Shown here: positions 46,474-64,000 of the stretch, piece after piece
How positions within the stretch are numbered: position 1 is the first letter of the stretch
How the letters are laid out: each line of letters starts with the position of its first letter
Assembly: GCF_019263745.1 (NCBI RefSeq)
Contig: NZ_CP077107.1
Span: 3,286,001-3,350,000, forward strand
Origin: Methanospirillum hungatei
GTDB taxonomy: Archaea > Halobacteriota > Methanomicrobia > Methanomicrobiales > Methanospirillaceae
Direction: 5' to 3'
DNA: 64,000 nt
Made by a program: the position numbers and the translations under genes
The notes under the pieces: model-generated
Database searches by the model: none
What the model saw: only the letters and a program-made list of their open reading frames with translations
What the model was told of the DNA's origin: nothing

Positions 46474-46619
46474 ATGAATTGCCCTGCACTCTTGCTGATA
46501 GGTGATTATCCTCAGACATCGTATATAGTTAATGGCCGTGTGTGATGAATTTTTTATGGACACCTGATGCCGGAGTCATGAATTAGCAATCATAAAACCA
46601 AAAAGAAGTGAAAATAAAA

Positions 46620-46692
46620 TACTCCCGAACGGATTCGAACCGTCGTCATCGGAACCAAAATCCGATATGATTGACCTCTACACTACGGGAGT
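46620..46692 (-). tRNA. tRNA-Gln (TTG)
   Basis: 73 nt on the minus strand. The acceptor stem is ACTCCCG/CGGGAGT, the anticodon stem TCGGA/TCCGA with loop TTTTGGT gives anticodon TTG, and the T-arm is CGG TTCGAAT CCG. Discriminator A. No intron and no encoded CCA. Confidence 0.96.
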
Positions 46693-46715
46693 ATTGAAAA
46701 GCTGTGTGAGCCTTG

Positions 46716-46749
46716 CCTACACATATTCGTGTTGATAGGATATAGAAAT
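46716..46749 (-). promoter_or_regulatory. tRNA-Gln promoter (TATA-like box and initiator)
   Basis: On the minus strand AATTTCTATATCC (46737-46749) is followed by ATATGTGTAGG close to position 46715-46725, a variant of the CATGTATAGG before the Thr and Asp tRNAs. Confidence 0.45.
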
Positions 46750-46940
46750 TCCCGCTCACAAAAAATGAACCGATGGTGATAAAGAAATAACTCGATTCTA
46801 CTCACCCTAAAATTTTCAGTTTATACTCTATTTTATGACAAAATCTGGTTTATTACGGAAAATGAATAGTTCTTTCATTAAGCGTATCACAAGATCACTT
46901 CAAAGCTCGCGCTATTTATCTTTCCTGGAAGACATCAGGA

Positions 46941-47912
46941 TTATCCATGTTCATCATAATGATCCGGCTCAGATGATTTTCGCTGATAATTCTCAGTATT
47001 TCTTCTTCCCGAAGATGCAAGCGGGAAAAATTCCCGATATACCTGGCGCCGTTCATCAACATCTGTATGCAGATATACTTCTGTGGTCTTGATCGATGCA
47101 TGGCCGAGATTTTCCTGCACAACACGAAGATTACGGGATCTTCTGTACAATTCACTTGCATAACTGTGTCGGATTTTGTGCGGAGTTATCCCCTGGGGGG
47201 CATATTTTTTAAAAATTAACTGAACCGTTCTTGGTGAGATATGTTTTCCTGATTGTCCTGGAAAAAGGGGGCCTGAAAGACGAGTTCCTACGATGTTGGC
47301 TATTTCATCCAACGTGTCCTCATCAACAAATACCATACGGACTTTTCCACCCTTACCCATGACACGGATCATCTGGTCATCAAAATCAACATCTTCAACA
47401 TTCATCGTGCACAGTTCTGATACGCGAACCCCGGTTGCATAAATAATTCTGATCATCAGCCGGTCCCGATCATCAGGAATTGATTGCAGTAAACGCATTA
47501 CCTGACTGTGTTTTAAGTATTTGAGTTCTTTTTCTTTCACTTTTGGACGATCTACCCGTGGTACAGGGTTTATATCGATGACTTCCTGCATAAGAAGAAA
47601 CCGGTAAAAGGATGAAAGTGATGATAGGATTCGGTTATATGTTGTAGCATGGTACTGATGATCACGGGAGAGGAATTCAAGGTACCCTGAGATCTCAGAT
47701 GCAGTGACCAGTACATCTGTATCAAGTCTGAGTAGTTCTTTATGGCTCCACTTTTTTGAGAGGTCACCACGATGCGATCGAGAGAGCCAGATATACTGCC
47801 CGAACCGTCTGAGGGTAATGTTGTAACTGCTTAGAGTTTTTTGCGAATAATTCCTCATTTTCAGATATTGGATAAACCGGGGAATCCATTCTGAAAAATA
47901 CCCATTAATCAC
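46941..47912 (-). CDS. xerA: tyrosine recombinase (XerA-like)
   Basis: A 323-residue site-specific recombinase. An N-terminal SAM-like core-binding domain (residues 5-115) is followed by the catalytic domain. Catalytic residues are R163 (YATGVRVSEL), K187 (MGKGGK region), H245-x-x-R248 (PHKIRHSYA), H271 (LGHASIKTT) and Y280 (EVYLHTD). This set is complete. Its size and similarity pattern fit chromosome-dimer-resolving XerA more than phage integrases. The nearby tRNA-Gln could be a coincidence; no attachment repeat was seen. Confidence 0.88.
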   Translation of the reverse strand: MINGYFSEWIPRFIQYLKMRNYSQKTLSSYNITLRRFGQYIWLSRSHRGDLSKKWSHKELLRLDTDVLVTASEISGYLEFLSRDHQYHATTYNRILSSLSSFYRFLLMQEVIDINPVPRVDRPKVKEKELKYLKHSQVMRLLQSIPDDRDRLMIRIIYATGVRVSELCTMNVEDVDFDDQMIRVMGKGGKVRMVFVDEDTLDEIANIVGTRLSGPLFPGQSGKHISPRTVQLIFKKYAPQGITPHKIRHSYASELYRRSRNLRVVQENLGHASIKTTEVYLHTDVDERRQVYREFFPLASSGRRNTENYQRKSSEPDHYDEHG

Positions 47913-48075
47913 TACTATATCGTATATATCTCAATAATTAAAACTATTTCGTAGAATACCTATTCTGCGAAACTTAGATCTCGATATTTCTTTATAGCGA
48001 CTATTCCAACAATGATATCAGATATATCCCGGTGTCACCCTGCTACCCTGAGAAAAGTGTTGAGGTCAAGCATAA

Positions 48076-48831
48076 ATGCCTGAAAATTCTGTCCTTATAG
48101 TCGAGGACGATGAGATAATTACCCGTGTCTTACTATCGATGCTTCGTGACGGGGGGTTTGTCCTTCACACTCCGGTAAATTCCGGTGAACAGGTCATCGA
48201 ACAGGTAGCTGCTGAAAGGCCTGATATCGTATTGATGGATATTGACCTGCCCGGAGCAATATCCGGAATAGAAGCAGCGACTGAACTTTTTAACATCTTT
48301 ACAATACCCGTGATATTTGTAACCGGACATGATGAGAGAAAAATATTGGAAAAGGCGATTGGGGCATTGCCATTTGGTTTTCTGATAAAACCAGTAAATC
48401 CAAATCTTTTGTACAGCGCCATCAAGGTGAGTACACATCTCTGCGAAAAAATGCGTCAGACAACTGAGGGTAGAAAAGCCGGTCTTACTCCTTCAATGGA
48501 TGTTCAGATCTCAACTTCCTCTCATCCGATCCTTATCATAAATTCTGGTTTAAAAATAATCTGGATGAATCAGGCTGCAGAAGAATGTATCGGGGAGAGC
48601 AGTTCTTCACTCTTTTTAAAAGATGTCCGGGAAGGATTATCATTACGAGGATCTGGTTTAGAAATCTCTCCTGATTTTTTCAGGTCAATAGATGAGTCCA
48701 GGGTACAGGTTCCGTTGTGTCCATCTTCAGAAGAAAGGCAATATATAATTACATCCCGACCGATTATGAATATGTTTGGTACGTATTCCGGTTCATTTGT
48801 GACGATAACAACACCTTCGCAGCAGGGATAA
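48076..48831 (+). CDS. response regulator, receiver plus PAS-like domain
   Basis: A 251-residue protein. The receiver (1-120) has D11-D12 and the phospho-acceptor D55 (IVLMDIDLPG), T83 and K104. Residues 140-245 look like a PAS domain (HPILIINSGLKIIWMNQAAE, then CIGESSSSLFLKD). There is no output domain of the DNA-binding type. It lies 52 bp upstream of the CHASE4 kinase gene on the same strand and is very probably its partner. Confidence 0.9.
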   Translation: MPENSVLIVEDDEIITRVLLSMLRDGGFVLHTPVNSGEQVIEQVAAERPDIVLMDIDLPGAISGIEAATELFNIFTIPVIFVTGHDERKILEKAIGALPFGFLIKPVNPNLLYSAIKVSTHLCEKMRQTTEGRKAGLTPSMDVQISTSSHPILIINSGLKIIWMNQAAEECIGESSSSLFLKDVREGLSLRGSGLEISPDFFRSIDESRVQVPLCPSSEERQYIITSRPIMNMFGTYSGSFVTITTPSQQG

Positions 48832-48839
48832 ACCCATAC

Positions 48840-48860
48840 ACCCCCACATGTACAGGGGGT
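48840..48860. repeat. 6-bp hairpin before the CHASE4 kinase gene
   Basis: ACCCCC (48840-48845) and GGGGGT (48855-48860) pair around a 9-nt loop that has the palindrome ACATGT. It lies in the 52-bp gap between the response regulator and the kinase gene, before the ribosome site AAGGGGAG. It may set the ratio of the two products. Confidence 0.45.
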
Positions 48861-48883
48861 AATCCGAAGGGGAGTTTTGTATT

Positions 48884-51790
48884 ATGGATCTTCGGACAAA
48901 AGCATTCCTCATTATCGGACTCACCTTGATTTGTGGTATCCTTCTCATTACACTATTTTCATTTTCTCTTTTGAATGAAAGTTATACCAGATTTGAAGAA
49001 GATGATGTCACACAAAAAGTGATCCAGGCTCAGAAGGTACTGGAATATGAAAAGGCACAGATCCTCTCCCTGGCTGGTGACTGGTCCAGATGGGATGAAT
49101 CATACAATTTTGTTCTTGATAGGAATGAAGACTATATTATCCGTAACCTGAACTATGCATCGGTGGAGAATCTGGGCATTGATTTTGCGCTCTTCTTAAA
49201 GGATAATTCTTCAGTAAAGTATGGTACGCAAGTCAATAAAACTACTGAATCGATGGAACAACTCTCAAACGAAACGATAGCACAAATACTTGCAATACCT
49301 GGCTTCTTTTCTTTTGATTCTATTTTAGATGGTCACTCGGGAATGATTATTTTCCCAAAAGGTCCGGCACTCGTTACTTCAGAGCCAATTATTACCAGTA
49401 CATACCAAGGACCCGCTGCAGGTATTCTGGTCTTTGGTATGTATTTGTATGAAGAAAAAATTCAGCAACTTTCTGATATATCTGATCTTTCTATACAGGT
49501 AACTCCTGTATCTTCACAAAATATTGAACCATATGATTACCCTTCAGTTCAAACAAAAAAGAATATTTATGTTAATCCAATCTCTGAAGATTTAATCCAA
49601 GGTTTTACCTACTTGCCAACTCTTGATTCTCAAGGATATCTGGAACTGCTTGTATCTTCACCGCGAAATATTGTAAAGCAGGGGAAAGAGACGATTTTTG
49701 CGTATATTATTATTCTCATGGGCCTTGGTCTCTCGATTATTTTTGTCTCACTCCTCACGGTAGACCAACTCGTTCTAAAACGGCTCCATACCTTGATAGA
49801 GAACATTAAATCCCGAAACCTGAAACGTGAAAATCTATCCGATATTCTCCTTGACGGCAACGATGAATTTTCAGATCTTGCAAAAGAGATTCATCCGGTA
49901 TTCATGGAGTTAGGCCGATCAAGAAGAGAGTTAGAAGAACATGTCAGACTCCTTACAGAAAGTGAAAAGAAGTATCGCGAACTAGCAGACTTGCTCCCTG
50001 AGTTTGTGTTTGAATCAGATCTGGATGGGAATATCTCATTTATGAATCAGATGGGAATGTCAATTTCAGGGCTTAACCAGAATGTACACCTGTCCGATCT
50101 TCATATCCTGCGAATTATTGATGAGGCGGATCATTCCCGGTTCCGTTCGGCCCTTGAAAAGATTAAGACTGGAATTCCTATTAGTGGAGTTGAATATACG
50201 GGGGTAAAAAATACAGGTGAGCGCTTTCCCTTGATTATGTACGCATCTCCCATAATGTCTGGTTCGGTGATTACTGGTCTTCGAGGGTTTGCCATTGACA
50301 TATCTGAGAGAAAAGAGATTGAAACCTCACTTCGGAAATTAGCAAATATTGTCGAGCATACCAGCACCGGGATTGTAACCGGACGAAGTCATGAAGTGGA
50401 CTATGTTAATTCAGCATATTCGATAATGCATGGTATGGAGCCATCTGATTTGCTGAGAAAAAATCCCTTCATTGTTGTTACTGGATATCCGGAAAAGCAA
50501 TTTACCCCATATCTGGAGAGTGCACTTCATTCTGGTCATGCAACCTTTGAACTGGATCATATCAGAAAAGATGGAACGCGATTTCCTGTCCTCCATGATC
50601 TCACCATTCTTTCCGGAGAAAGTTCTGAAAATGCGATATGGTCTTTGAATGTCCAAAATATTACAGAGCAGCGTCTTGCATGGAAAGCTCTTGTGGAAAG
50701 TGAAGCTCTCAGGGAATCTGCAAGACAATTGCGAGACGTTATCTCGCGTCTTCCTGATGCGACATTTGTCATTGATAAAGACGGGTGGGTTATTTTCTGG
50801 AATCAGGCGATGGAGGCCCTGACAGGCATTTCTGAATCAGATATCATCGGTCGTGGCAGATATGAATATGCTATCCCTTTTTATGCGGAAAAACGTCCCA
50901 TGCTCCTGAATGCTGTTCTTAACAAAGAAGGAACTCTGATGGAACATTTCCCGGATGCCAGCAAGTCGGGCGATTCTTTATTCATTGAAGAATCATTTCC
51001 TCAAATGGGAAAAGGGGGAAAATTCTTTTCTTCAATGGCAGGGCCGCTCTATGATTCCAGGAAAAATGTGATTGGCGCTATTCAAAGTATGCGTGATATT
51101 ACTCCACGGATAATGGCTGAAAAAGCGCTCATGCGGACAAATGAAAAACTCAATCTGTTATCCAGCATTACCCGTCATGATATTCGTAACAGGGTGTCTG
51201 TAATTCTCGGATTGATTCCTTTGCTCAAAGGAGATGAGAAAGATCCTGAAACTCTTGAGATTATTAGTATTGTGGAAAGTGCAGCAAAGCTCATCCATGA
51301 TCAGATAGAATTTACCCGGGTATATCAAAACCTCGGTGTTCATTCTCCGGAATGGAAAGATGTTGGAGATCTGGTCTTCAAAGTAACCGATGTAGGTATT
51401 CCAGAACGGATACAGATAGAGAATAATCTGTCAGGTCTGTTCGTGTATGCAGATCCTTTACTGGAACGGGTGTTTTATAATTTAGTGGATAATGCCATCC
51501 GGCATGGAGGCACGGATCTTTCTGTCATCCGGTTTTACTGGCAACATAGGGATACTTCAATCTGTATTTATTGTCAGGATGATGGCCTTGGAATCCCAGG
51601 AGATCTCAAAGAAAAAATATTTGAGCGCGGATATGGGAGTAATACCGGGCTTGGATTATTTTTAGTCAGAGAAATATTGTCAATTACAGGCATCACAATT
51701 GTTGAGACTGGACTTGAGGGTAAAGGGGCACGATTTGAGGTAGTTGTGCCTTATGGTGGATATTCGGTAAAAAATCGAAAAGAAGAATGA
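48884..51790 (+). CDS. membrane histidine kinase, CHASE4 - HAMP - PAS - HATPase
   Basis: A 968-residue sensor kinase. TM1 (about 7-28) and TM2 (about 270-292) frame an outside CHASE4 domain, marked by AGDWSRWDESYNFVLDRN (64-81). A HAMP-like region (295-355) and three PAS domains (about 365-475, 485-600, 625-740) follow. The H-box SSITRHDIRNRV has H765, and the ATPase has LVDNAIRHGG and GYGSNTGLGLFLVREIL. The likely partner is the response regulator upstream. Full length, no defects. Confidence 0.92.
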   Translation: MDLRTKAFLIIGLTLICGILLITLFSFSLLNESYTRFEEDDVTQKVIQAQKVLEYEKAQILSLAGDWSRWDESYNFVLDRNEDYIIRNLNYASVENLGIDFALFLKDNSSVKYGTQVNKTTESMEQLSNETIAQILAIPGFFSFDSILDGHSGMIIFPKGPALVTSEPIITSTYQGPAAGILVFGMYLYEEKIQQLSDISDLSIQVTPVSSQNIEPYDYPSVQTKKNIYVNPISEDLIQGFTYLPTLDSQGYLELLVSSPRNIVKQGKETIFAYIIILMGLGLSIIFVSLLTVDQLVLKRLHTLIENIKSRNLKRENLSDILLDGNDEFSDLAKEIHPVFMELGRSRRELEEHVRLLTESEKKYRELADLLPEFVFESDLDGNISFMNQMGMSISGLNQNVHLSDLHILRIIDEADHSRFRSALEKIKTGIPISGVEYTGVKNTGERFPLIMYASPIMSGSVITGLRGFAIDISERKEIETSLRKLANIVEHTSTGIVTGRSHEVDYVNSAYSIMHGMEPSDLLRKNPFIVVTGYPEKQFTPYLESALHSGHATFELDHIRKDGTRFPVLHDLTILSGESSENAIWSLNVQNITEQRLAWKALVESEALRESARQLRDVISRLPDATFVIDKDGWVIFWNQAMEALTGISESDIIGRGRYEYAIPFYAEKRPMLLNAVLNKEGTLMEHFPDASKSGDSLFIEESFPQMGKGGKFFSSMAGPLYDSRKNVIGAIQSMRDITPRIMAEKALMRTNEKLNLLSSITRHDIRNRVSVILGLIPLLKGDEKDPETLEIISIVESAAKLIHDQIEFTRVYQNLGVHSPEWKDVGDLVFKVTDVGIPERIQIENNLSGLFVYADPLLERVFYNLVDNAIRHGGTDLSVIRFYWQHRDTSICIYCQDDGLGIPGDLKEKIFERGYGSNTGLGLFLVREILSITGITIVETGLEGKGARFEVVVPYGGYSVKNRKEE

Positions 51791-51795
51791 GAATA

Positions 51796-51868
51796 CGCCC
51801 AGATCGGAATTCGAATCCGAGTCGTCGGCGTGACAGGCCGACATGATAGGCCACTACACTATCTGGGC
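51796..51868 (-). tRNA. tRNA-Asp (GTC)
   Basis: 73 nt on the minus strand. The acceptor stem is GCCCAGA/TCTGGGC, the anticodon stem GTCGGC/GCCGAC with loop CTGTCAC gives anticodon GTC, and the T-arm is CGGA TTCGAAT TCCG. Discriminator G. CATGTATAGG lies 12 bp upstream and a TATA box TTTTTATAAC another 12-20 bp on. Confidence 0.97.
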
Positions 51869-51880
51869 TTTGGGACAACC

Positions 51881-51910
51881 CCTATACATGTTGTCTGTCT
51901 GTTATAAAAA
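51881..51910 (-). promoter_or_regulatory. tRNA-Asp promoter (TATA box and initiator)
   Basis: On the minus strand TTTTTTATAACAG (about 51899-51910) is followed by CATGTATAGG (51881-51890), 12 bp before the tRNA. The decamer is identical to that before tRNA-Thr. Confidence 0.6.
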
Positions 51911-51976
51911 ACCCATTGTTTCATTCGACACACGATCTTACCGTGGCCTTATCTGTAAGGCAATTCTAACGGTACT

Positions 51977-52594
51977 TTGATGTCAACACCATTCCGTTCA
52001 CGGGATCCTACCAAGTATCACAAGTTCAGGAAGGTTGATGGCGCATCCTATTCTCAGGTAAATCAGTTTCTTCGAAAAAGAACTTTTATCACTGCCAGAG
52101 AATGGGCAATATCAAGATTGTGTGCCGATTTTCAGACATCATCCGGTGCAGAGATGACGTACATCGGAAAAAACCTCCCCGAATTGGTTCCGTTTATGAC
52201 CGGAACATACACCCCTCAGGCAGTAAATCAGGCACGAAGTTCTTTTAAAAAGAAAGTGAGTAAAGCAGGAGCAACATTCCTCTATGGGGCAATGTGCGGG
52301 TTTTATACTCCAGAAGAACTTGATGATTTATTGTTTGAAGTAAGTGAAGTAGCCCGGTTCCTCATGGAAATAGAGAGTACCTCTATTGAAGTGGACAATG
52401 AAATTGAAGTAGAAGACCGGGTAACTGAAGTAATGCGGCATGTCGCCCTGGCTTCATCACGTCTCCTCAAGATTCGTGAAGAACAGTTACGGGAAAAACA
52501 GGAAAAGCGAAAGAAAAAAGACGCAGATACTGATGAGCCAGTAGAAGAGCTCAGTACTCAGCCTGTGAAACCTCAAGAAGATGCATATGACTGA
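51977..52594 (+). CDS. conserved euryarchaeal protein (DUF5806-like)
   Basis: A 205-residue protein that looks like a conserved family of unknown role found in methanogens and haloarchaea; I name DUF5806 from memory. The core (residues 10-160) includes FLRKRTFITAREWAISRLCA and PELVPFMTGTYTPQAVNQAR. The last 40 residues are low-complexity and charged (KEKRKKKDADTDEP). The 3' end overlaps the GlmM gene, so translation is probably coupled. It could be a DNA- or RNA-associated protein. Confidence 0.75.
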   Translation: MMSTPFRSRDPTKYHKFRKVDGASYSQVNQFLRKRTFITAREWAISRLCADFQTSSGAEMTYIGKNLPELVPFMTGTYTPQAVNQARSSFKKKVSKAGATFLYGAMCGFYTPEELDDLLFEVSEVARFLMEIESTSIEVDNEIEVEDRVTEVMRHVALASSRLLKIREEQLREKQEKRKKKDADTDEPVEELSTQPVKPQEDAYD

Positions 52595-53942
52595 AAAGAA
52601 AAAGCAGTTATTTGGGACGAATGGAGTCCGGGGAATCGTTGGTGAACTCATAACTCCTGAACTTGTCATGAAGATTGGAATGGCTGTTGGAACCATGCGT
52701 CCTGGTACAATTGCCGTCGGAATGGACACACGGACTTCCGGACCTGCATTAATTAATGCAATGAAGGCAGGACTCATGGCAACCGGCTGTGATGTCATTG
52801 ACTGTGGTATTCTCCCGACTCCGGCTCTTCAGTACATTGTTATGAATCGGTATGATGCAGGAGTCGTCATTACTGCATCCCATAATCCCGGTGCTTATAA
52901 TGGGGTTAAGGTTATAGAAAAAGACGGGACTGAAATGGATGATGATGGTTCCATAGAGATAGAAGAACGTGTTTTTTCCTATAATTTTGATCTAAAGGAA
53001 TGGAAAGATGTTGGAGTAGTAATTCCTGAAGGGGATCTTGTTCAGAAATATGTAAAAGGAGTTGTAAGTAAGGTTCCAACAAATATTGGTGAAGGCATGA
53101 AGGTCGTCATAGACCCGGGATGTGGTGCAGCATACCGGACAACGGCTGAGATATTGCAATCTATTGGTTGTCAGGTCTTTACCTTAAATGCGTACCCTGA
53201 TGGAAATTTCCCGGCCCGGGATCCTGAACCATCCATTGAAGGACTGGCTCCGCTTGCTGATATGGTTGTTGGAACCGGAGCAGCATTTGGTGTTGCCCAC
53301 GACGGTGATGCGGATCGTGCTGTCTTTATAGATGATAAAGGGCGTTTTGTCGAAGAAAATAAAGAATTTGCACTTATTGCAGAATACATGTGCTCTCAAA
53401 GGAAAGGAATTCTGGTTACACCGGTGAGCACATCCAGATTAATAGAAACTGTGGTTTCCCCTTATGGATGCACCGTTGATTATACTGCGGTTGGTAGCAT
53501 CTATGTCGCACGTCGGATGAGAGCACTTCTTGCCGAAGGTAAACCGGTTTCTTTTGGAGGTGAAGGAAATGGTGGTCTCATTTATCCTGATCATCAGTTC
53601 TGCCGGGATGGTGGGATGACTGCTGCGATGATGGTTACTCTTCTTACCTCAAAAAAACAGCCTCTCTCCTCTCTCGTTGATGCACTCCCCCCTTCTATTA
53701 TGCTTAAGCATAAATTTCATACCGGAAATGCAGAAAAAATTCTCGCTGCAGTGCAAAAAAAATTCTCAAGTGATTCCCTGAATCTGGTCGATGGGATCCG
53801 GATAGATAGAAAAGATGCCTGGGCTTTAATTCGACCTTCAGGCACTGAACCTCTGGTCCGGTTGTATGTGGAATCGCCTGAACAAGCCACAGCGAAGGCA
53901 TTTGAGCAGGAGATATTATCCTGCATATCCTCTTTTATTTAA
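52587..53942 (+). CDS. glmM: phosphoglucosamine mutase / phosphomannomutase family
   Basis: About 451 residues from the ATG at 52587 (an ATG 6 bp earlier is in frame; numbers here count from it). An alpha-phosphohexomutase. The active-site serine is S100 in ITASHNPGAYNG, the metal loop is HDGDADRAVF, the sugar-binding loop is GGEGNGGLIYPDHQFCRDGG, and the phosphate-binding loop is RPSGTEPLVRLYVE. The start FGTNGVRGI points to the GlmM side, which gives glucosamine-1-phosphate for UDP-GlcNAc, but archaeal members can also use mannose or glucose phosphates. Confidence 0.92.
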   Translation: MTEKKKQLFGTNGVRGIVGELITPELVMKIGMAVGTMRPGTIAVGMDTRTSGPALINAMKAGLMATGCDVIDCGILPTPALQYIVMNRYDAGVVITASHNPGAYNGVKVIEKDGTEMDDDGSIEIEERVFSYNFDLKEWKDVGVVIPEGDLVQKYVKGVVSKVPTNIGEGMKVVIDPGCGAAYRTTAEILQSIGCQVFTLNAYPDGNFPARDPEPSIEGLAPLADMVVGTGAAFGVAHDGDADRAVFIDDKGRFVEENKEFALIAEYMCSQRKGILVTPVSTSRLIETVVSPYGCTVDYTAVGSIYVARRMRALLAEGKPVSFGGEGNGGLIYPDHQFCRDGGMTAAMMVTLLTSKKQPLSSLVDALPPSIMLKHKFHTGNAEKILAAVQKKFSSDSLNLVDGIRIDRKDAWALIRPSGTEPLVRLYVESPEQATAKAFEQEILSCISSFI

Positions 53943-54124
53943 TCCATTTTTATAAATATTGTTTAATAAATTAACGCAAATTAATGCGGTATATTTAAAT
54001 ATTAAACTTTATGATGCTATATATTAGAAGAGGTAAAATAATCTAATAATTATTAAAATAGAATTATTTAGTATGGCATATTTTGATGATGCCACTCAAA
54101 TGAAAAATAGAACCAAAAATCGAG

Positions 54125-55084
54125 TTAAAAATGAATTTTCAGGGTAGGTGATCGGAGAATCGTAAATTGGGTTTCTCCCTGTAATGCCTGAAGAAGATTT
54201 TGAATCTGTGAATCTATCAGATTTTGTTCAATTGATTCTGAAAAAAGAGTTATTAACTTTGTAATTATTTCCTCATGAAGGATACATCGATCCCGAGTGA
54301 GCTCAAACCCTTTGGATGGAAACTCGTCAGATGCGAGAAATTCAATGGCCGGCTTATCAATCATCCCTGGTTTCCAGCAATTCATAAGATCCTGGATGAG
54401 GGCCTGGTCTCCTCGATTTAAAAATCCCGAAGATGGATTTAAATGCCCACCTATAACTGCCCGCATACATGCAGAGGATAACATTCCATACCCAAAAGAA
54501 AGGATTGCATTAACAGGATCACGATACGGGCGGATTGTTCTTCGTTTAAAGTTATATGTCGGACTAATTATTCTGCTAATGATCTCGTAATACATATCCC
54601 GAACCAGTTGATCAATCCGACGAAGTTCATCAATGAGCACCATATTTCCCAGTTCATTTAAATATCCCGATAAAATATCCAGTTCTCCCGAATAGAGAAT
54701 GTCGGTGCCGAATTTTTCGGTATGTTCTTCGATGGCAAAAATTCTCGATTTCATTGATCCAAAAGCACATGTTAATGCATACGAATACGGTGCTGTCGTC
54801 TCCTGAAGATTCTGTATTTCTTTAAATGAAGTATAATCATAGGGGGCAATATATCCTACCGGTTTACCGTCTGATTCACAAAATGAAATAAAAGTTCCCT
54901 CTTTCATGAGGGTTGAAATCGTTGAGGTCTGAATAGTATGCCCACCGATTAGCAGGAAATGAGATATATTACGAATAGGGATCTCAGTTACATTCCCTCT
55001 ATGAGAAATTATGATCTCAGTACGGTTTGATTTTATATGGGCTCCATACCCTCCCACTACTTTCCAGTTTACATTCATTGGCAC
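54125..55084 (-). CDS. solo Cas1-like protein with altered active site
   Basis: A 319-residue homologue of Cas1, the integrase of CRISPR adaptation and casposons. The N-terminal beta domain is residues 1-85 (TEIPIRNISHFLLIGGHTIQ), and the C-terminal helical domain is 100-300, with FKRRTIRPYRDPVNAILSFG (179-198) and GHLNPSSGFLNRGDQ (213-227). By alignment the catalytic Glu is replaced by D158 (IDQLVRDMYYE), the His by N223 (GFLN where GFLH is usual), and the Asp kept as D232 (QDLM). No cas2, other cas gene or CRISPR repeat is near. It may be a repurposed or inactive Cas1. Confidence 0.82.
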   Translation of the reverse strand: MPMNVNWKVVGGYGAHIKSNRTEIIISHRGNVTEIPIRNISHFLLIGGHTIQTSTISTLMKEGTFISFCESDGKPVGYIAPYDYTSFKEIQNLQETTAPYSYALTCAFGSMKSRIFAIEEHTEKFGTDILYSGELDILSGYLNELGNMVLIDELRRIDQLVRDMYYEIISRIISPTYNFKRRTIRPYRDPVNAILSFGYGMLSSACMRAVIGGHLNPSSGFLNRGDQALIQDLMNCWKPGMIDKPAIEFLASDEFPSKGFELTRDRCILHEEIITKLITLFSESIEQNLIDSQIQNLLQALQGETQFTILRSPTLKIHF

Positions 55085-55101
55085 TCAAAGGTTACGTTAA
55101 A

Positions 55102-56031
55102 TTATGACTCTGGGTAGTTCTCAATCCAATATCCGTCTGAATCCTGAAGATATGTAGATCCAGAATTTTCTATCAAATTTTCTGGGTTCATTCGAACATC
55201 TGTCTGGATAGAATGTTTCTCCCCTTTTATTGACAGACCAGTTAATGCAAAATGGTCTAATCCATAACCACTAGCCTTGACAGGTGTTCCATCCGGACTG
55301 ATCAGGCCATATAAAAGAATGAGTCTTCTTCCTGATGAATCAGTAAGCCATATGAATCTTTTTCCTGGAATAGTAGTTTTTGAATCTGATGTAATCGAGA
55401 AACCAAGTGTTTTAGTATAATATTGTGCAGACTTTTCCGGATAAGTTGCATGAAGTGTGATAGAATCAATTGATGTGATGCAGGATCCATGAAAAGTATC
55501 TTCTGTTCCAGGTTTCAGTTCAATTACCCGTCCGTCTGGATCCTGAACATATATTGAGTGGATAAGATTGTCTTCGGTAAACAGGGTTCCATCATAATTT
55601 TGATCACCCCATTGAAATGTGGCTTCTGCTTGGGCAAGATCCCATGCAAGTATTTCTGCATTTACTGATGGTGAAAGAGTACATGAAAATCCAAATATTG
55701 TCTTACCATCGACTGATTTCGTCATTCCGGTTTCAGGATATCTTTTTTGAACCAATAAAATATTGTATTTACTTCCTGATGATGCAAGAAGGGCAATATC
55801 AGTATACTGATCATGTAAAGCTCGCGGCGAAATTCCCTTAATAATCCCTTTTAATAATCCTTGTCCACCTGAAACCGCTTTTCCTACGAATCGACCGCTC
55901 GCTGATAATGTTCCGAGGTTTACTGGACCGAAAACCTCCATCTGCAGTATATTCTGGTAAAAACGAATACTTTGCTCAAGGCTTGTTACCTGTAATGCAA
56001 TATGGTCAAGTGATATCATATTATTATTCAT
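55102..56031 (-). CDS. tandem VOC (glyoxalase/dioxygenase-like) protein
   Basis: A 309-residue protein with two vicinal-oxygen-chelate domains, about residues 4-160 (starting SLDHIALQVTSLEQSIRFYQ) and 185-305 (SIDSITLHATYPEKSAQYYT). This is the layout of CatE-like dioxygenases and paired glyoxalase-fold proteins. Metal ligands likely include H8, H196 and E135/E178 region acids. The substrate is unknown. It lies 17 bp upstream of the Cas1-like gene on the same strand, so the two may be co-transcribed. Confidence 0.85.
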   Translation of the reverse strand: MNNNMISLDHIALQVTSLEQSIRFYQNILQMEVFGPVNLGTLSASGRFVGKAVSGGQGLLKGIIKGISPRALHDQYTDIALLASSGSKYNILLVQKRYPETGMTKSVDGKTIFGFSCTLSPSVNAEILAWDLAQAEATFQWGDQNYDGTLFTEDNLIHSIYVQDPDGRVIELKPGTEDTFHGSCITSIDSITLHATYPEKSAQYYTKTLGFSITSDSKTTIPGKRFIWLTDSSGRRLILLYGLISPDGTPVKASGYGLDHFALTGLSIKGEKHSIQTDVRMNPENLIENSGSTYLQDSDGYWIENYPES

Positions 56032-56096
56032 AGATTAGGTATTCTACTAAGGTGGTCAACAACAGAGAAAAATAAGTTTGCTTTTTTACTTGATAA

Positions 56097-57323
56097 TCAG
56101 GCAAACCTTTCAGAACTTTTTTCAAGAGCAGCAATGGCCGGAAGTTTTTTTCCGGTTAAAAATTCGATACAGGCACCACCACCTGTGGATATATGGGTAA
56201 ATCTAGAATCATATCCCATTTTTTCAATGACCGCAGCTGTATGCCCACCCCCGACGACAGAAAATTCTGCTTCAGCAGCAGCTTTAATTATTTCATAGGT
56301 TCCGAATGAGTAATCAGATTCTTCAAATAATCCGGCAGGACCGTTCAGGACTACGGTACGGGATGAGCGGATGAGATCAAGACATGGGATCAATCCTTCA
56401 GAGCCGAGATCTAATATCGGGCAATCCGCGGGAATATCCCGAACATGCATTTCAACACGAACGCCATCTTTCTTTATCGCTACATGTTCAGGAACAACGA
56501 TCTTATCATTAAACTGTGATAAAATTGAACGTGCAATTTCAATCTGTCCGGTATATCCTAATTGCTCAATGAGGTCCATTGATGGTTTTCCAATATCAAA
56601 ATCTTTGGCAGCGAGGAAGATATTTGCAACCACGCCAACTGCAAGAACATAATCAGCGATACCATTTAAAAGGACATGACGGGCAACATCAATAGAATCG
56701 TCAACCTTCGTTCCCCCTAAGATAAATGTCACCGGACGAGGAGCGCCTTGGAATACGCGTGATAGATTTTCAACTTCACGTTCCATTAAAAGGCCGGCAA
56801 TTGCAGGGAGGACTTCAGGAAGACCGACAATTGTAGGCTGAGATCGGTGAGCGGTTCCGAATGCATCATTGATGAAGATATCTCCCATCCTGGCCAGATT
56901 TCTAATCAGCACCGTCTTTGCTGATTCCTCTCCGGATAGTTTGAGGTTTTCTTCAGCATTAAACCGTACATTTTCCAGCATAATGACATCGCCGATGTTT
57001 GCCTTTTTTATGGATTCCTGTGCATATGATCCAAAGATATCATCAATAAATCTGACCGGTTTTCCAAGTAATTCTGAAAGCCTCTGAGCATGGGCATACA
57101 GGGAGGTAAAATCCTTTTTTCCTGGTCTGCTTTGATGGGTGATGATAACCGTTTTTGCTTTATCAAGTGCCTTTATGGTATAGAGATGTTCCCGAAAGCG
57201 CTTGTCATCAAGGATTACTCCTGCCTGAGGATCAATAGGAGAATTAAAATCAACCCTCAGAAGGACCGTTTTTCCAGAAACATCAACATCCGATAATCCC
57301 TTAATTTTTGAATATATGCCCAT
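56097..57323 (-). CDS. pgk: phosphoglycerate kinase
   Basis: About 408 residues from the Met at 57323; a frame open to 57359 would add 12. It makes 3-phosphoglycerate and ATP, or the reverse in gluconeogenesis. N-domain signature VLLRVDFNSPID, basic patch HQSRPGKK, and the C-domain nucleotide loop VVNGPAGLFE and SVVGGGHTAAVI. The archaeal form is slightly longer than the bacterial one. No defects. Confidence 0.96.
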   Translation of the reverse strand: MGIYSKIKGLSDVDVSGKTVLLRVDFNSPIDPQAGVILDDKRFREHLYTIKALDKAKTVIITHQSRPGKKDFTSLYAHAQRLSELLGKPVRFIDDIFGSYAQESIKKANIGDVIMLENVRFNAEENLKLSGEESAKTVLIRNLARMGDIFINDAFGTAHRSQPTIVGLPEVLPAIAGLLMEREVENLSRVFQGAPRPVTFILGGTKVDDSIDVARHVLLNGIADYVLAVGVVANIFLAAKDFDIGKPSMDLIEQLGYTGQIEIARSILSQFNDKIVVPEHVAIKKDGVRVEMHVRDIPADCPILDLGSEGLIPCLDLIRSSRTVVLNGPAGLFEESDYSFGTYEIIKAAAEAEFSVVGGGHTAAVIEKMGYDSRFTHISTGGGACIEFLTGKKLPAIAALEKSSERFA

Positions 57324-57475
57324 AGATATCTCCGGTTTAGTATCTCTCGGAAAAATCACAGCTTATTTTCAGCTGGAAGTACATAAAATCCTGTCATGAT
57401 CTGATTTAATTAAATCGATTATTTTGTTTCAGTGTGTGTGATGAAACTGGAAAAAGAGATGAATAGATATTTACA

Positions 57476-58714
57476 TCAAACCTCCCAATTCAACACCCAT
57501 TTCCACATTGGCATAATCTGAATCACCCCTTCAGAAACCCGAACTGCTCCCTCCTGGCTCATAGTAATTACCATCCCCCAGTCAAGGCCATACTGCTTCA
57601 TAGCTTCCTGCAAACCATCATATTCCCGCTCCCTGTTCATATCAGTTAATTCTGAGCAGACTTGATACAGAGCATTCACCTTGCCATTCTGGATGATAAC
57701 AAAATCACATTCCTTAGCAGAAAAATGGTAATAGACATCAAAACCACGGCGTTTTAACTCTGTCAGTACCAGATTCTCAAGGAGTTTTTCATGATCCCCG
57801 GAAACCCTGAAGGCCACCTGATTTCTCATGCCGGAATCGACCGCATAGATCTTTTTCCCGGTTCCATACTGTTTCTTCAGGGATGGATCATACCGGTGAA
57901 CTTCAGTTATCAGATGGGTATCTGTCAGAATATGGATGTAATCCCTGACTGTCATAGGACTTTTCATTCCGAGCAATGAGGCCAGGGATCTGTAATGGAC
58001 TTCGGTTCCAATGTTTGTGAGAAGAAACCGTGCCAATCTGATAAATCCGGCACCGTCCCTGATATTCCACCTGGCGATACAGTCCTGGTACAGGATCGTT
58101 TCATATATACTTCTGGTATGCTCGGCATCCCACATTCTTACGTATTCCGGAAATCCTCCTTCTTCCAGATAACGGTCCAGGTGCGACAGGATGGCAATCT
58201 GGTTTTCAGACTCCGTGCTTATCTCTATCGCATGCCAGGTGAGGTACTCGGCAAATGAAAATGGATAGAGCTCAATATTGGCCCAAATCTCCTGTGGTGA
58301 TTTATCTGAATGAGATGTTATGGTGCCGTGTGAAACAGTGCTGAAAATTTTATACCCAGCATTATGTAATTGTCTGATTGTCTCTCCGCATCCGGGCAGG
58401 TTCTGGATTTCATCAAGAAGGAGGATCTTGATTCCTGGTTTTCGTTTTTCCAGAAGAAGTAACCTGGTAGTCAAGTCTGATAATCCATGAAAGCGTATGT
58501 CGGCAAGGTTCAGATAATGATAGGCTTGAAAATGAGATGCAATCTGCCGAAGCAGGGTTGTTTTTCCACATCTCCGGACACCGGAAATAGTGATCACCTG
58601 GTTATGGTAAAGGTATTTGGAGAGGTTGATGGACCGGGGTGTTCCGGGATCTTTCCGTGCAAATGATTTCACCTGATCCTGAATGATACGATCAAGCTGA
58701 TGAATAGTAATCAT
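57476..58714 (-). CDS. ATP-binding protein, AAA_14/DUF4143 family (second copy)
   Basis: A 412-residue protein of the same family as the one at 7426-8760 but clearly different. Walker A is GVRRCGKTT (45-53), Walker B ILLLDEIQ (D101-E102), and the DUF4143 end has the pattern ECDFVIIQNGKVNALYQV. Role unsettled, as for the first copy. It stands alone beside the PGK gene and the AT-rich gap. Confidence 0.85.
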   Translation of the reverse strand: MITIHQLDRIIQDQVKSFARKDPGTPRSINLSKYLYHNQVITISGVRRCGKTTLLRQIASHFQAYHYLNLADIRFHGLSDLTTRLLLLEKRKPGIKILLLDEIQNLPGCGETIRQLHNAGYKIFSTVSHGTITSHSDKSPQEIWANIELYPFSFAEYLTWHAIEISTESENQIAILSHLDRYLEEGGFPEYVRMWDAEHTRSIYETILYQDCIARWNIRDGAGFIRLARFLLTNIGTEVHYRSLASLLGMKSPMTVRDYIHILTDTHLITEVHRYDPSLKKQYGTGKKIYAVDSGMRNQVAFRVSGDHEKLLENLVLTELKRRGFDVYYHFSAKECDFVIIQNGKVNALYQVCSELTDMNREREYDGLQEAMKQYGLDWGMVITMSQEGAVRVSEGVIQIMPMWKWVLNWEV

Positions 58715-59500
58715 ATGTATAATAGTGTTATTTATTTTTTGATAATTTGTATTTTAGTAAAATACGTTAAACGATATTTGTTTTTTGAATATAACTCAAT
58801 CTTCGTGATGTTGATGTAAGTAAAAATGAGTTCATTATCGAATTTTCGAGATTAGCATATAAATGGGCGTAGTTATCTCGTTTGATTGCCCTACTTCTCT
58901 ATGGTTACAGAAATTAATAAGAATTGAGGTATCGTATTTTGATTAATTGTAGGGCTATAATATCCGAGTGAATAAAATATGAATATATCTTAAATTTTTG
59001 AGATACTGGTGATGGCGAGCATTTGTGGGTTTTCTCACAAGAAATCTAATCTTAAGTATTAAAAAAAATATTGTCTGGATGAATTCATTTAAGTTTAAAA
59101 ATAAATAAGTAAATCCGATATTTATTAGTAATAGTGGAAAATTACCCGCCTATATCAAACATTGTTTTTTAAAATGCTGGGGTTTATATACAGCAAATCA
59201 AGTCATATTCATCTGGACAGAGAGCATCTCTCAAATTTGCGGATTTGCTCTTTTTTTTAAGTAATGTCGATTTTATGGGAATATTAAGTAATTTTAACAA
59301 ATTTTATGCGGTTTTTAATTCCTCCTTACACCTTCCTTATCTTATTTATTCGATATGGTCTGAAATTGTAGAGCATTTGGGTTTATCCTGGATTTTTCAC
59401 ATTTTAAAAGAGAATTAAGGGTTACACTACTGAATGTGAAATGATTTTCAGTTGTGATGAGCGAAGAGGAAAAATAGCATTAATCCGAAAAAAAAAGAAT
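58715..59500. other. AT-rich intergenic region
   Basis: About 785 bp with no gene that I can support. It is AT-rich, with many stops in all frames. It separates the ATPase gene from the end of the giant surface protein gene. No repeat or strong hairpin was found by eye. Confidence 0.55.
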
Positions 59501-62500
59501 TTATTCTATTACTCTTATCATCTCATTCATCATACTCGTTCCTCCAGAATTATTGTTATATGCACGTAATGAGACTGAGTAAATTCCTGGACGGGTATAT
59601 TTGTGTATTGGATTCCTGAATGATGAAGTTTGGCCATCTCCAAATTGCCAATACCACATAGTAGGCTCACCCAATGATTCATCGAAAAACTCAACTCTTA
59701 ATGGGAGTTTTCCGGTACATGGGGTGGCATTGAACATTACATGAACCTGATGAGGGTTGGCATCACCTACCGTCTGTATAGAGTGATCTGTAGTGATGTT
59801 CGTAAAGGTATAAGATTTATTTGCTCCTTTTGATTGTTCGTCAACAATTACATCAAGTAACTCAGCGCCGGGTTTTGATTGGGTAATAAATGTCTGATTC
59901 GATTCTTCTGGGTAGGTTTTATTACCGGAAGGATAACTGATTGTCCATTTATCGCTTGTTGAATTGATATAAAATCCGGCTGTTGTAGGTGTTGGTGTTA
60001 CTGTTGGAGTCGGGTTAACATTAGTTATTGTAAACCCGTTGATCAATGTCCCCATTTGTCCATCCAGATTTGTTACGGTAACATTCCACAAACCCGGTGC
60101 TGCATCGGTAATTGGAAGAGTGCAGGTTATATGTGATGGACTGTTAACGGACACAGTATTTGCTATAATCTCTGAATTTCCAGTTCTTGAAAGTTTAACA
60201 AGTGCTCCGGTTTGAAAACCACTTCCCTCAAGGTTACGGATATTAATTGGATTGCCATTTACCCCTGAAGATGGTGTTATGCTCGTAATTATGGGTGAGG
60301 CAGTTCCAATATTCACAACTTCAAGAGCATTACTGCTATAACTGGCTACATAAGCATAATTTCTGGATACTGCCACACTCCAGGGTTTATCTAGGAGAGC
60401 CCCTCTAGTTCCATTTACTATGCTTCCGGCATGGACTGGATTTTCAGGATCGAAAATATCGATGATTTCAAGGGCATCGCTAAATGGACTTGCAATATGT
60501 GCATAATTGCCGAAAATATATACACTTATAGGGTTGTATAAAAGAGATCCACCTTCACCATCAGAAATACTTCCTTTATGAATAGGATTTGCGGGATTTT
60601 TAATATCAATGATCTCAAGAGCATTGCTACCTGAACTGACAACATAAGCATAATTATTAGAGACAAAGACATATTGAGGATTATTTATTCGGGCCCCTCC
60701 TTCTCCATCACTAATGCAGCCTTTATGAACAGGATTAGCTGGATTGGATACATCGATTATTTCAAGGGCATTACTGGACGAACTGGCAACATATGCGTAA
60801 TTTCCAGATACAAAAACAGAGAATGCACCATTCAGTTTTGCCCCCTCTTCCCCGTCGGTTATACTACTTGAATGGACAGGTTTTTCTGGATTCGAGATAT
60901 TAACAATTTCTAGGGCGTTACTACCCTTACTTGCTACATATGCATTATTCCCTGAAACATACACGCTATAGGGCTCATTTAATTTTGCTCCTCCTTCTCC
61001 ATCTTTAATGTAGCCTTTATGGACAGGGTTTGTAGGATTAGAAACATCGATTATTTCAAGGGCATTACTTCCGGTACTTATTACATATGCATAAATTTCA
61101 GATATAAAGACATTATATGGATTATCCAGTAGAGCTCCATTCGTTCCATTTACAATAGATCCTGTATGGACTGGATTTTCCGGGATTGAAATATCAATGA
61201 TTTCCAGGGCATTACTAGAACTGACAACATATGCATAATTGTCTTTCACAAATACCCCATGTGGGCCGAACAGTTTAGCTCCTCCCTGACCGTCAACAAT
61301 ACTCCCTGCATGGACCGGATTTAATGTTCCTGTTTTTGTGATTGTAAATCCGTTGATCAATGTTCCCATTTGTCCATCTGGATTCATTACTGTAACATTC
61401 CATAATCCTGGTGATGCTCCGGTTATTGGGATTGTGCAGGTAATTTTGGTTGACGAAGGGTATTGGACATTCGTTGCGGTGATATTTGAATAACCGGAAC
61501 GTGAAAGATTCACAATTGCACCTGAATGGAAATTATTTCCCGATAAATTTGTAATGGTGGCTGATTCAGAATTGATTCCTGATGAAGGTATTATTTCATT
61601 TATTGGAATTAAATCATTTGACGTAATTCCGTTAAGTTTCATTTCTCCATTAAATCCATAAGGTTGTAATCCTATTGGTGATACTGTAACAGTATATTCC
61701 CCAACTTCATCAGGATCAATAAAGCATGTGAGATTATTCGAGTCCGATTGATAATAAGCAGTACCTGGAGTTAATTTTATAGATTTTCCAGATTTGTATG
61801 TTATGGTAATATTTACTTTTTCTGACAATAGATTTGAATCTTTTAACGAATTAATATCATAATTACCATCTCCAGTACAACAAATTGTGAGCAATGTTGC
61901 CCCTATTACTGGGAACCTAAAAACAGTATAGGCATTAGCTGTAATTTTAGCAGTTTCCCATGTTTTTATTATTAAATTCGGTTTTACTCCTGTTGGTTCA
62001 TTTGGGAGAATATTTGTAGATGACTTTAGCGGGTTTTGATAATAACCTACAACGTGATTGATGGTTTCCTGTTGATGACAGATTTTTTGATGGTTGTAAG
62101 AAGATGCTTCCTCATGGTCCCAATATATTCCCATTATTGGTAATGTATCAAATTGTTCTCCTACGTTATGGAAATATGATTGTGTGTTTGCAACAATTCC
62201 ATCTCCAAGAAATGTCCATGAATAGGCATCATTTATTTTTTGTCTGGTCACAGCAAAAAGTAAATTATTAAAAAAAATCGAAGCATCCGGATTATATCCT
62301 ACAATTACACGATATATTGTATTTTTATTTAGTTGATTCTTATTTATATTATTATTTAGTTCCTTTACTGTTTCACTATTTGTAGATAATTGGGTTAAAG
62401 CTGAACCAGGGTCAAATATACCAATAAGGTTTAAAATGGCCCGAAAAATAAATAATCCATCTTCATCATCTGCTAAGGCCGAACCTCCTGTGACTGGGGC

Positions 62501-64000
62501 AATGCCTATCCATTGCCTGACATTTGCATCTCCATTCTCGAGATTTTCCATTTCCCATCGACTTACCAATGCCCCCATTGAATGGCAAATAATATCAATA
62601 GGACCATAATAATGTATTTCATCTCTTTTATTTTCAATAAATGCTTTAAACTGATGTGCAATTACTCTTGGGTCACCCCTATTATTATCTGAATAATCAA
62701 AAGCCCAAGTTTCAATTCCTTCTTTATTTAATCTCTTAATCATTTCAGTCCAACAAGAAGGGTCACTATTAAAGCCATGAACCAAAACAACCGGTGTTTT
62801 ACTAAAATTCGCTTCAATAGTATGATCTGTTTTTACTTTAGTAAAGGTAAATGGCGATGTGTTATTTGCAAATTTCCCATCTATTGTAAAATTGGCAGTT
62901 TGATAACTTTTATCCGGGATAAAAGTAAAGGTTACATTCTCACCATGCTCTACGTAGACGCTTCCAGATGGTTCGATTTTTCCACCATCCCCAGCAGATG
63001 CTTCAATGATATGAGATGAAGTATTTACTTTAACAAGTGGAGCAGTATCATATACACCTAAAGAAACCTCATAAGGTGTTGTTGTATACCCTTTGGGATT
63101 AGGTGGCTGGAGGTCTGACCATCCTTTTCCCTTTGGGATGCTCCAATAATTTCCAGCAATATAAGGGCCACCCATGATGTTTGTTCCGGGTAGTGGACCT
63201 GCGGGATTCGTCCAATTGGATAGGTCATTATTACTAAAAATATCGGTATTGACTTCATTACCAAAGTAATTGTTATAGATCAATCCGTCCGTTATCCCAT
63301 CCAAAAATATACCACTTTTTTCATTACCAGTTATGTTATTACCTACAATATTAGGAAAACCACCATTAATATAAAGACCACAATTACGATTATCAGAGAT
63401 ATTATTGCCTATAATATTAATAGAATCGCCGTCATGATAACCACCATAGATTCCATAAAAATTATTACGAGTAATATTGTTATTCTGAAGTGTAGAATTA
63501 AATCCTACATTCGTCCCAACCTCATTATTTTTTATTTTATTATTTTTTATCGATGTTTTTACTCCGCCATCACTTATACCATTAAAATTATCAAAGACAT
63601 TATTTGCAATTACACTTACATTGCTAACAATAGTGCCTCCATAATAATCCGTTATAACAATGCCATAATCACTATTGTAAATAGTATTATTATCCACTAT
63701 AGAATTTGATCCAAATACATTGATAGCAAAATTAGTTTCATAGTTCGAATTATCATGTAAAATATTATCTGAAATCAATGAATTAGGACCTGAAGAGACT
63801 ATCCCATTGTAAGTAGAATTTGTTACTGTATTTCCAAATATTTTTGCATGAGCACCCGATGATCTAATGCTAAAGTCCCATCCACCGCTAACAGTGTTTT
63901 CGGAAATTGTTGAATCATTACCCCCTGAATAAATCGGATATGTAAATCCAGCGATTAATTTATTCCTTGAAATTGATGCATTATTACCTCCAGATAATAT
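59501..64000 (-). CDS. giant mosaic surface protein (beta-helix, lipase-like, IPT/TIG, seven-bladed propeller, PKD), partial
   Basis: The frame is open to the window edge, so only the last 1499 residues are seen. By window position, in order: parallel beta-helix (NosD-like) repeats at 63150-64000; an InlB-like repeat domain at 62810-63030; an alpha/beta hydrolase at about 62000-62800 with oxyanion VLVHGF and nucleophile ICHSMG (near 62581); an IPT/TIG domain at 61330-61640; seven LVIVD-type repeats (about 47 residues, SNALEIIDI) at 60303-61325; a second TIG at 60020-60300; another InlB-like repeat at 59770-59960; and a C-terminal PKD domain (WQFGDGQTSS) at 59510-59760. Secreted or anchored. 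Confidence 0.85.
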   Translation of the reverse strand: MLSGGNNASISRNKLIAGFTYPIYSGGNDSTISENTVSGGWDFSIRSSGAHAKIFGNTVTNSTYNGIVSSGPNSLISDNILHDNSNYETNFAINVFGSNSIVDNNTIYNSDYGIVITDYYGGTIVSNVSVIANNVFDNFNGISDGGVKTSIKNNKIKNNEVGTNVGFNSTLQNNNITRNNFYGIYGGYHDGDSINIIGNNISDNRNCGLYINGGFPNIVGNNITGNEKSGIFLDGITDGLIYNNYFGNEVNTDIFSNNDLSNWTNPAGPLPGTNIMGGPYIAGNYWSIPKGKGWSDLQPPNPKGYTTTPYEVSLGVYDTAPLVKVNTSSHIIEASAGDGGKIEPSGSVYVEHGENVTFTFIPDKSYQTANFTIDGKFANNTSPFTFTKVKTDHTIEANFSKTPVVLVHGFNSDPSCWTEMIKRLNKEGIETWAFDYSDNNRGDPRVIAHQFKAFIENKRDEIHYYGPIDIICHSMGALVSRWEMENLENGDANVRQWIGIAPVTGGSALADDEDGLFIFRAILNLIGIFDPGSALTQLSTNSETVKELNNNINKNQLNKNTIYRVIVGYNPDASIFFNNLLFAVTRQKINDAYSWTFLGDGIVANTQSYFHNVGEQFDTLPIMGIYWDHEEASSYNHQKICHQQETINHVVGYYQNPLKSSTNILPNEPTGVKPNLIIKTWETAKITANAYTVFRFPVIGATLLTICCTGDGNYDINSLKDSNLLSEKVNITITYKSGKSIKLTPGTAYYQSDSNNLTCFIDPDEVGEYTVTVSPIGLQPYGFNGEMKLNGITSNDLIPINEIIPSSGINSESATITNLSGNNFHSGAIVNLSRSGYSNITATNVQYPSSTKITCTIPITGASPGLWNVTVMNPDGQMGTLINGFTITKTGTLNPVHAGSIVDGQGGAKLFGPHGVFVKDNYAYVVSSSNALEIIDISIPENPVHTGSIVNGTNGALLDNPYNVFISEIYAYVISTGSNALEIIDVSNPTNPVHKGYIKDGEGGAKLNEPYSVYVSGNNAYVASKGSNALEIVNISNPEKPVHSSSITDGEEGAKLNGAFSVFVSGNYAYVASSSSNALEIIDVSNPANPVHKGCISDGEGGARINNPQYVFVSNNYAYVVSSGSNALEIIDIKNPANPIHKGSISDGEGGSLLYNPISVYIFGNYAHIASPFSDALEIIDIFDPENPVHAGSIVNGTRGALLDKPWSVAVSRNYAYVASYSSNALEVVNIGTASPIITSITPSSGVNGNPINIRNLEGSGFQTGALVKLSRTGNSEIIANTVSVNSPSHITCTLPITDAAPGLWNVTVTNLDGQMGTLINGFTITNVNPTPTVTPTPTTAGFYINSTSDKWTISYPSGNKTYPEESNQTFITQSKPGAELLDVIVDEQSKGANKSYTFTNITTDHSIQTVGDANPHQVHVMFNATPCTGKLPLRVEFFDESLGEPTMWYWQFGDGQTSSFRNPIHKYTRPGIYSVSLRAYNNNSGGTSMMNEMIRVIE
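60303..61325 (-). repeat. seven LVIVD-type protein repeats (about 141 bp each)
   Basis: Seven units in the surface protein, each with a YAYV(V/A)S...SNALE(I/V)(I/V)(D/N)I core followed by NPVH-G-I-DG. They should fold into a seven-bladed beta-propeller. Units 2-5 are most alike, which suggests recent duplication. Confidence 0.85.

What the first reader, a model, noticed from the sequence alone, without database searches (positions are those of the whole stretch)
54125..55084. Solo Cas1 homologue with a changed catalytic triad
The protein has the two-domain pattern of Cas1, but no cas2, other cas genes or CRISPR repeats are in the window. Lined up by eye, the Glu is D158 and the His is N223 (GFLN for GFLH), while D232 is kept. 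Cas1 proteins outside CRISPR loci are known in archaea (casposases and other solo Cas1). A solo Cas1 with Glu-to-Asp and His-to-Asn changes would be a repurposed, perhaps structural, member. The VOC gene 17 bp upstream may be in the same operon.
Basis: partly seen in the sequence, partly recalled or inferred. Interest (0 to 1): 0.8.

Follow-up and report, generated by a model that had tools for sequence, protein, structure and literature searches.

The report
Inactive solo Cas1, methanogen core gene
This gene encodes a relative of the CRISPR integrase Cas1 that has lost its cutting site and sits outside any CRISPR system; the family was described in 2013-2014, but here it proves to be an almost universal, vertically inherited core gene of one order of methanogens, with its own strictly conserved residues, so it probably has an unrelated and still unknown housekeeping job.

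Summary
ORF 54125-55084(-) is Cas1 (Pfam E 3.6e-51). Alignments put D158, N223 and D232 at the catalytic Glu, His and Asp columns. No CRISPR element is nearby; the same genome carries two ordinary cas4-cas1-cas2 loci elsewhere. The family is already known: Cas1-solo group 1 of Methanomicrobiales, reported in 2014 to lack a full active site. New here: 148 of 150 genomes of the order have it, nearly always as one copy. It has conserved chromosomal context, and 22 of 59 genomes have it without any CRISPR Cas1. D/N/D is private to this species. Across 103 relatives the Glu column is mostly His or Ser and the His column varies freely; only the Asp is kept. Instead, Q94, E134, R156, E167, R171, R266 and C267 are 100% invariant and absent from, or rare in, CRISPR Cas1. 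On the old catalytic helix, conservation has moved to the opposite face. The C-terminal domain has turned acidic. The VOC neighbour is conserved only within Methanospirillum. Best reading: a non-catalytic Cas1-fold protein exapted for a non-CRISPR cellular role, working through a new conserved site. Its biochemical role remains unknown.

The parts
54125..55084 (-). Cas1-solo group 1 protein, 319 aa (317 aa if the ATG at 55078 is the start)
   Evidence: Pfam PF01867 E 3.6e-51; AF2 model pLDDT 94.3, Foldseek to Cas1/casposase structures E down to 4e-16
54611..54613 (-). codon for D158, at the column of the catalytic Glu of Cas1
   Evidence: alignment with 31 CRISPR Cas1, all Glu
54416..54418 (-). 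codon for N223, at the column of the catalytic His of Cas1
   Evidence: alignment with 31 CRISPR Cas1, all His
54389..54391 (-). codon for D232, the retained catalytic-site Asp
   Evidence: Asp in 102 of 103 group-1 rows and 31 of 31 CRISPR Cas1
54284..54289 (-). codons for R266-C267, a group-1-specific invariant pair
   Evidence: 100% in group 1; R 0% and C about 3% in CRISPR Cas1
55102..56031 (-). VOC/glyoxalase-like gene directly upstream; Methanospirillum-specific neighbour
   Evidence: Pfam PF00903; adjacent in 4 of 4 Methanospirillum loci (gap 17-29 bp), in none of the other loci
56097..57359 (-). phosphoglycerate kinase upstream of VOC, context only
   Evidence: Pfam PF00162 E 7.5e-118; also upstream in the other Methanospirillum loci
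52581..53942 (+). phosphoglucomutase/phosphomannomutase family gene, convergent with cas1-solo; conserved context
   Evidence: Pfam; present near cas1-solo in 56 of 101 loci
51977..52594 (+). DUF5806 gene, conserved context
   Evidence: Pfam PF19122; present near cas1-solo in 54 of 101 loci

Best explanation
The gene is a vertically inherited, single-copy core gene of Methanomicrobiales that derives from Cas1 but no longer works as an integrase. Shown: fold and homology, lack of CRISPR and casposon linkage, decay of the Glu/His active site across the clade, strong purifying selection, near-universality, and a new set of strictly invariant residues. Inferred: it still forms the Cas1 fold and probably the Cas1-type dimer, does not cut or join DNA by the Cas1 mechanism, and acts by binding a partner (nucleic-acid structure, protein or small ligand) at a site built from Q94, E134, R156, E167, R171 and R266-C267, some of which lie on the face of the old catalytic helix opposite the lost Glu. 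Its role is cellular, not CRISPR adaptation. I put about 0.85 on 'exapted, not a Cas1 integrase' and about 0.4 on 'binding function at the new conserved site' as against a new chemistry or purely structural conservation.
For: Catalytic columns: CRISPR Cas1 of the order are EHDE in 31 of 31; in 103 group-1 rows the Glu column is His 59, Ser 18, Glu 5, the His column is His 54 with Arg, Ser, Asn, Tyr and others, and Asp is kept in 102. Entropy of the Glu and His columns is in the 57th and 65th percentile of the protein, i.e. no special constraint. Invariant in all 73 non-redundant members: G47 Q94 G133 E134 R156 Y165 Y166 E167 R171 D243 R266 C267; 21 positions are at least 95% in group 1 and below 25% in CRISPR Cas1. 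Conservation moment on helix 151-172 points to -174 degrees from residue 158 in group 1 and to +41 degrees in CRISPR Cas1. C-domain median net charge -6 against +2. dN/dS median 0.15, maximum 0.29, over 124 pairs. 148 of 150 genomes of the order; outside the order no hit above 80 bits, inside none of the listed full solo genes below about 92 bits. 22 of 59 genomes have the solo gene and no other Cas1. Group 1 separates from CRISPR Cas1 with SH-aLRT 99.
Against: One member (L068, G121) has a full E/H/D/E set, so a residual or regained activity cannot be excluded there. Asp232 is kept nearly everywhere, and H/H/D occurs in 30 rows, which could still bind a metal. The helical moments are only modestly significant (shuffle p 0.03 and 0.07). 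No operon partner common to the order points to a function.
Confidence: 0.8

Rival explanations
1. The protein is an accessory or dominant-negative partner of CRISPR adaptation, for example forming mixed dimers with the active Cas1 of the two CRISPR loci.
For: The genome has two complete cas4-cas1-cas2 loci with arrays, and the N-terminal domain that dimerises in Cas1 is kept.
Against: 22 of 59 genomes of the order carry the solo gene and no CRISPR Cas1, including single-contig genomes G017, G031, G034 and G043; the gene is vertical and core while CRISPR loci come and go; own CRISPR Cas1s are only distantly similar (about 26% over 140 residues for the one listed).
Confidence: 0.07
2. It remains a nuclease with an altered metal site (for example His/His/Asp in many relatives) acting in DNA repair, as has been proposed for some Cas1 proteins.
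For: D232 is kept in 102 of 103; 30 rows have H/H/D; one has the full E/H/D/E set.
Against: Glu and His columns vary as freely as an average column and change several times on the tree (at least 4 and 13 changes); the C-domain has lost many basic residues conserved in CRISPR Cas1 and is acidic.
Confidence: 0.1
3. It is a casposase or a casposon remnant.
For: Foldseek places the casposase 6opm among the best fold matches (TM 0.80); casposons occur in related archaea.
Against: Nearest family B polymerase matches are at the contig ends, about 51 kb away, no credible terminal inverted repeats, active site incomplete, conserved location over the order.
Confidence: 0.02
4. The gene is decaying and has no function; the active-site changes are drift.
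For: Active-site columns are unconstrained.
Against: dN/dS 0.04-0.29 over 124 pairs, full-length in almost every genome, twelve invariant residues over the whole order.
Confidence: 0.01

Closest known systems
Cas1-solo group 1 (Makarova et al. 2013; Krupovic et al. 2014, PMC4046053)
   Same: Cas1 family, outside CRISPR loci, confined to Methanomicrobiales, incomplete active site, vertical inheritance.
   Different: Nothing in kind. Added here: near-universality, synteny, group-specific invariants, acidic C-domain, one member (L068) with an intact E/H/D/E set, against the 2014 statement that none had it.
CRISPR Cas1 integrase (own genome C1:958215 and C1:2652980; PDB 4n06, 4xtk, 7ei1)
   Same: Two-domain fold, retained catalytic Asp232 column and several core residues (Y165, R182, N192, D243).
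   Different: No cas2, cas4 or array nearby; Glu and His columns lost; acidic C-domain; invariant R156, E167, R171, R266, C267.
Casposase (Cas1-solo group 2; PDB 6opm)
   Same: Cas1 fold outside CRISPR loci.
   Different: No PolB, no terminal inverted repeats, incomplete active site, fixed location, core gene.
TTV1 nucleocapsid protein derived from an inactivated Cas4 (cited in PMC5704561)
   Same: Precedent for a Cas nuclease turned into a non-catalytic structural protein.
   Different: A viral gene of a different Cas family; no evidence of a structural role for the protein here.

Membership tests
Cas1-solo group 1 | significant Cas1 homology | tested here: met
   PF01867 E 3.6e-51
Cas1-solo group 1 | not linked to CRISPR or other cas genes | tested here: met
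   no repeats in the window; the only two cas2 genes are elsewhere
Cas1-solo group 1 | found only in Methanomicrobiales | tested here: met
   148 of 150 genomes in the order; in 296 genomes of the phylum nothing outside the order above about 80 bits
Cas1-solo group 1 | clade separate from CRISPR Cas1 | tested here: met
   one clade, SH-aLRT 99, against 10 CRISPR Cas1 of the order; casposases were not in the tree
Cas1-solo group 1 | incomplete set of the four active-site residues | tested here: met
   D/N/D/N here; one relative (L068) is E/H/D/E
Casposase | family B DNA polymerase in the same element | tested here: not met
   nearest PolB matches at the contig ends, about 51 kb away
[quoted passage not shown]
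   only short imperfect inverted repeats of chance type in 46000-64000
Casposase | complete active site | tested here: not met
   D/N/D/N
CRISPR Cas1 integrase | catalytic Glu, His, Asp | tested here: not met
   only D232 kept
CRISPR Cas1 integrase | partner Cas2 | tested here: not met
   no cas2 beyond the two CRISPR loci
CRISPR Cas1 integrase | DNA cleavage and integration activity | not testable with these tools
   needs purified protein

The most novel reading that the evidence does not exclude
The Cas1 fold has been turned into a housekeeping protein with a different activity: the order-wide invariant set Q94, E134, R156, E167, R171, R266 and C267 forms a new ligand-binding or catalytic site on the back of the former catalytic helix, making this a second, non-integrase functional class within the Cas1 superfamily.
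Probability: 0.25. Interest if true: 0.8.

Novelty: already known. Interest (0 to 1): 0.42.

Why it matters
Cas genes are usually thought of as mobile defence parts. A Cas1 descendant fixed as a near-universal single-copy gene of a whole order, under strong selection with its integrase centre gone, is a clear case of an immune integrase taken over for a cellular task. The family was noted in 2014 and set aside as inactive. The invariant residues listed here, absent from or rare in CRISPR Cas1, turn the open question of its role into direct mutagenesis and pull-down tests.

Tried and rejected
A Pfam scan of a whole locus as one frame failed. The 2013 paper that defined Cas1-solo is not held, so it is known here only through PMC4046053 and PMC9939771. 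Further literature searches found no later work on group 1 function. The idea that D/N/D is a shared functional triad was rejected: no other of 103 rows has it. A dedicated solo Cas2 was looked for and not found. An order-wide operon partner was looked for and not found: the gene is mostly flanked by opposite-strand genes (upstream minus 71, plus 29; downstream minus 78, plus 22). Co-directional upstream genes are the VOC gene in Methanospirillum and a peptidase M54 (archaemetzincin-like) gene in family f6 only. The 3D clustering of the invariant residues could not be measured because model coordinates are not exposed.

Full report
WHAT IS THERE. The ORF at 54125-55084 on the minus strand encodes 319 residues from a GTG, or 317 from an ATG two codons on. 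It matches Pfam Cas_Cas1 over its whole length (E 3.6e-51) and the NCBIfam cas1 equivalog. AlphaFold2 with a 73-row alignment gives a confident model (pLDDT 94.3, pTM 0.90), whose best PDB matches are Cas1 of Archaeoglobus, Thermotoga and Aquifex, and the casposase 6opm (E 4e-16 to 1e-14). So the Cas1 assignment is secure.

ACTIVE SITE. Aligned with 31 CRISPR Cas1 proteins of the same order, all of which are E/H/D/E at the four active-site columns, the protein reads D158/N223/D232/N235. The particular D/N/D pattern is found in no other group-1 member. The nearest relatives, all Methanospirillum or near it, are E/N/D (L034, L035) or E/S/D (L036). Across 103 group-1 rows (two loci, L037 and L088, are the same gene) the Glu column is His 59, Ser 18, Glu 5 and others. 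The His column is His in 54 and otherwise Arg, Ser, Asn, Tyr, Thr and more. Asp232 is kept in 102. In column entropy the Glu and His positions are ordinary (57th and 65th percentile), whereas in CRISPR Cas1 they are invariant. One member, L068, has the full E/H/D/E set.

WHAT REPLACED IT. Twelve residues are invariant in all 73 non-redundant members: G47, Q94, G133, E134, R156, Y165, Y166, E167, R171, D243, R266, C267. Twenty-one positions are conserved at 95% or more in group 1 and below 25% in CRISPR Cas1, among them R156 (Gly in CRISPR Cas1), E167, R171, R266, C267, H42 and H49. On helix 151-172, which carries the old catalytic Glu, the conservation moment points 41 degrees from residue 158 in CRISPR Cas1 and 174 degrees away in group 1 (shuffle p 0.07 and 0.03). 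The C-terminal domain has a median net charge of -6 against +2 in CRISPR Cas1, and many basic positions conserved in CRISPR Cas1 are lost (184, 226, 253, 274, 275, 283-285, 293), while new arginines appear at 156, 171, 181 and 266. Selection is strong: median dN/dS 0.15 over 124 pairs.

DISTRIBUTION AND CONTEXT. 148 of 150 genomes of the order have a relative, usually one. The two without are a 62% complete genome and a 96% complete draft in 190 contigs; a profile search does not find it there either. In 296 genomes of the phylum, everything outside the order scores at most about 80 bits, as CRISPR Cas1 does. Group 1 is one clade against the CRISPR Cas1 of the order (SH-aLRT 99; long branches meet there, so the join itself is uncertain). 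In 59 genomes of the order with any Cas1, 22 have only the solo gene. The own genome has two complete CRISPR adaptation modules with arrays. The location is conserved: an acylphosphatase gene lies convergent and directly downstream in 71 of 101 loci; phosphoglucomutase (56), DUF5806 (54) and a gene that reads as phenylacetate-CoA ligase (56; named from its sequence, not scanned) recur nearby. Most neighbours lie on the opposite strand, so the gene is usually its own transcription unit. The VOC gene is adjacent in 4 of 4 Methanospirillum loci and in no other. That the window is Methanospirillum is inferred: G149, of the same genus, has the gene on a 91537-base contig, the length of the M. stamsii contig that holds L035.

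INTERPRETATION. Krupovic et al. 2014 (PMC4046053) report that group 1 Cas1-solo occurs only in Methanomicrobiales, shows no horizontal transfer and that none of its members has the full active site; PMC5704561 reports that solo cas1 genes in general evolve more vertically than CRISPR-linked ones. The present gene belongs there. The data favour exaptation: the integrase centre drifts, DNA-binding charge is lost, but the protein is kept by strong selection with its own invariant set and regardless of CRISPR. I infer a non-catalytic (in the Cas1 sense) Cas1-fold protein that binds a partner or ligand through the new conserved site; the ligand is unknown. A CRISPR-accessory role is unlikely because so many genomes lack CRISPR Cas1. 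A casposon is excluded by the absence of PolB and terminal repeats nearby.

VERDICT. Observation confirmed; interpretation partly supported; family already known; function open. The added value is the demonstration of core-gene status and the list of group-specific invariant residues.

Noticed in passing
L068:7969-8895 (-), genome G121: A group-1 Cas1-solo with a complete E/H/D/E active-site set, against the published statement that no group-1 member has it; it also carries the group-specific invariant residues.
   Followed up: partly
L126-L131, L133, L134, L136, L137 (family f6): In family f6 a peptidase M54 (archaemetzincin-like) gene lies directly upstream of cas1-solo on the same strand, overlapping it by 1-4 bases in genus g24.
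   Followed up: partly
59501-63778 (-): A 1425-aa multidomain surface-type protein: NosD/beta-helix, alpha/beta hydrolase (lipase-like), LVIVD repeats with a 147-nt period, and PKD domain in one chain.
   Followed up: no
L167:6596-7716 and L168:10332-11986: Two CRISPR arrays of the same genome with different repeats, next to cas4-cas1-cas2 modules.
   Followed up: partly
51977-52594 (+): DUF5806 gene, of unknown function, recurs beside cas1-solo and phosphoglucomutase in about half of the loci of the order.
   Followed up: no
genome G032, contigs C339 and C73: A second, partial group-1 Cas1-solo copy (residues 170-309) in an 88% complete, 4% contaminated assembly; probably contamination or a split copy.
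   Followed up: no
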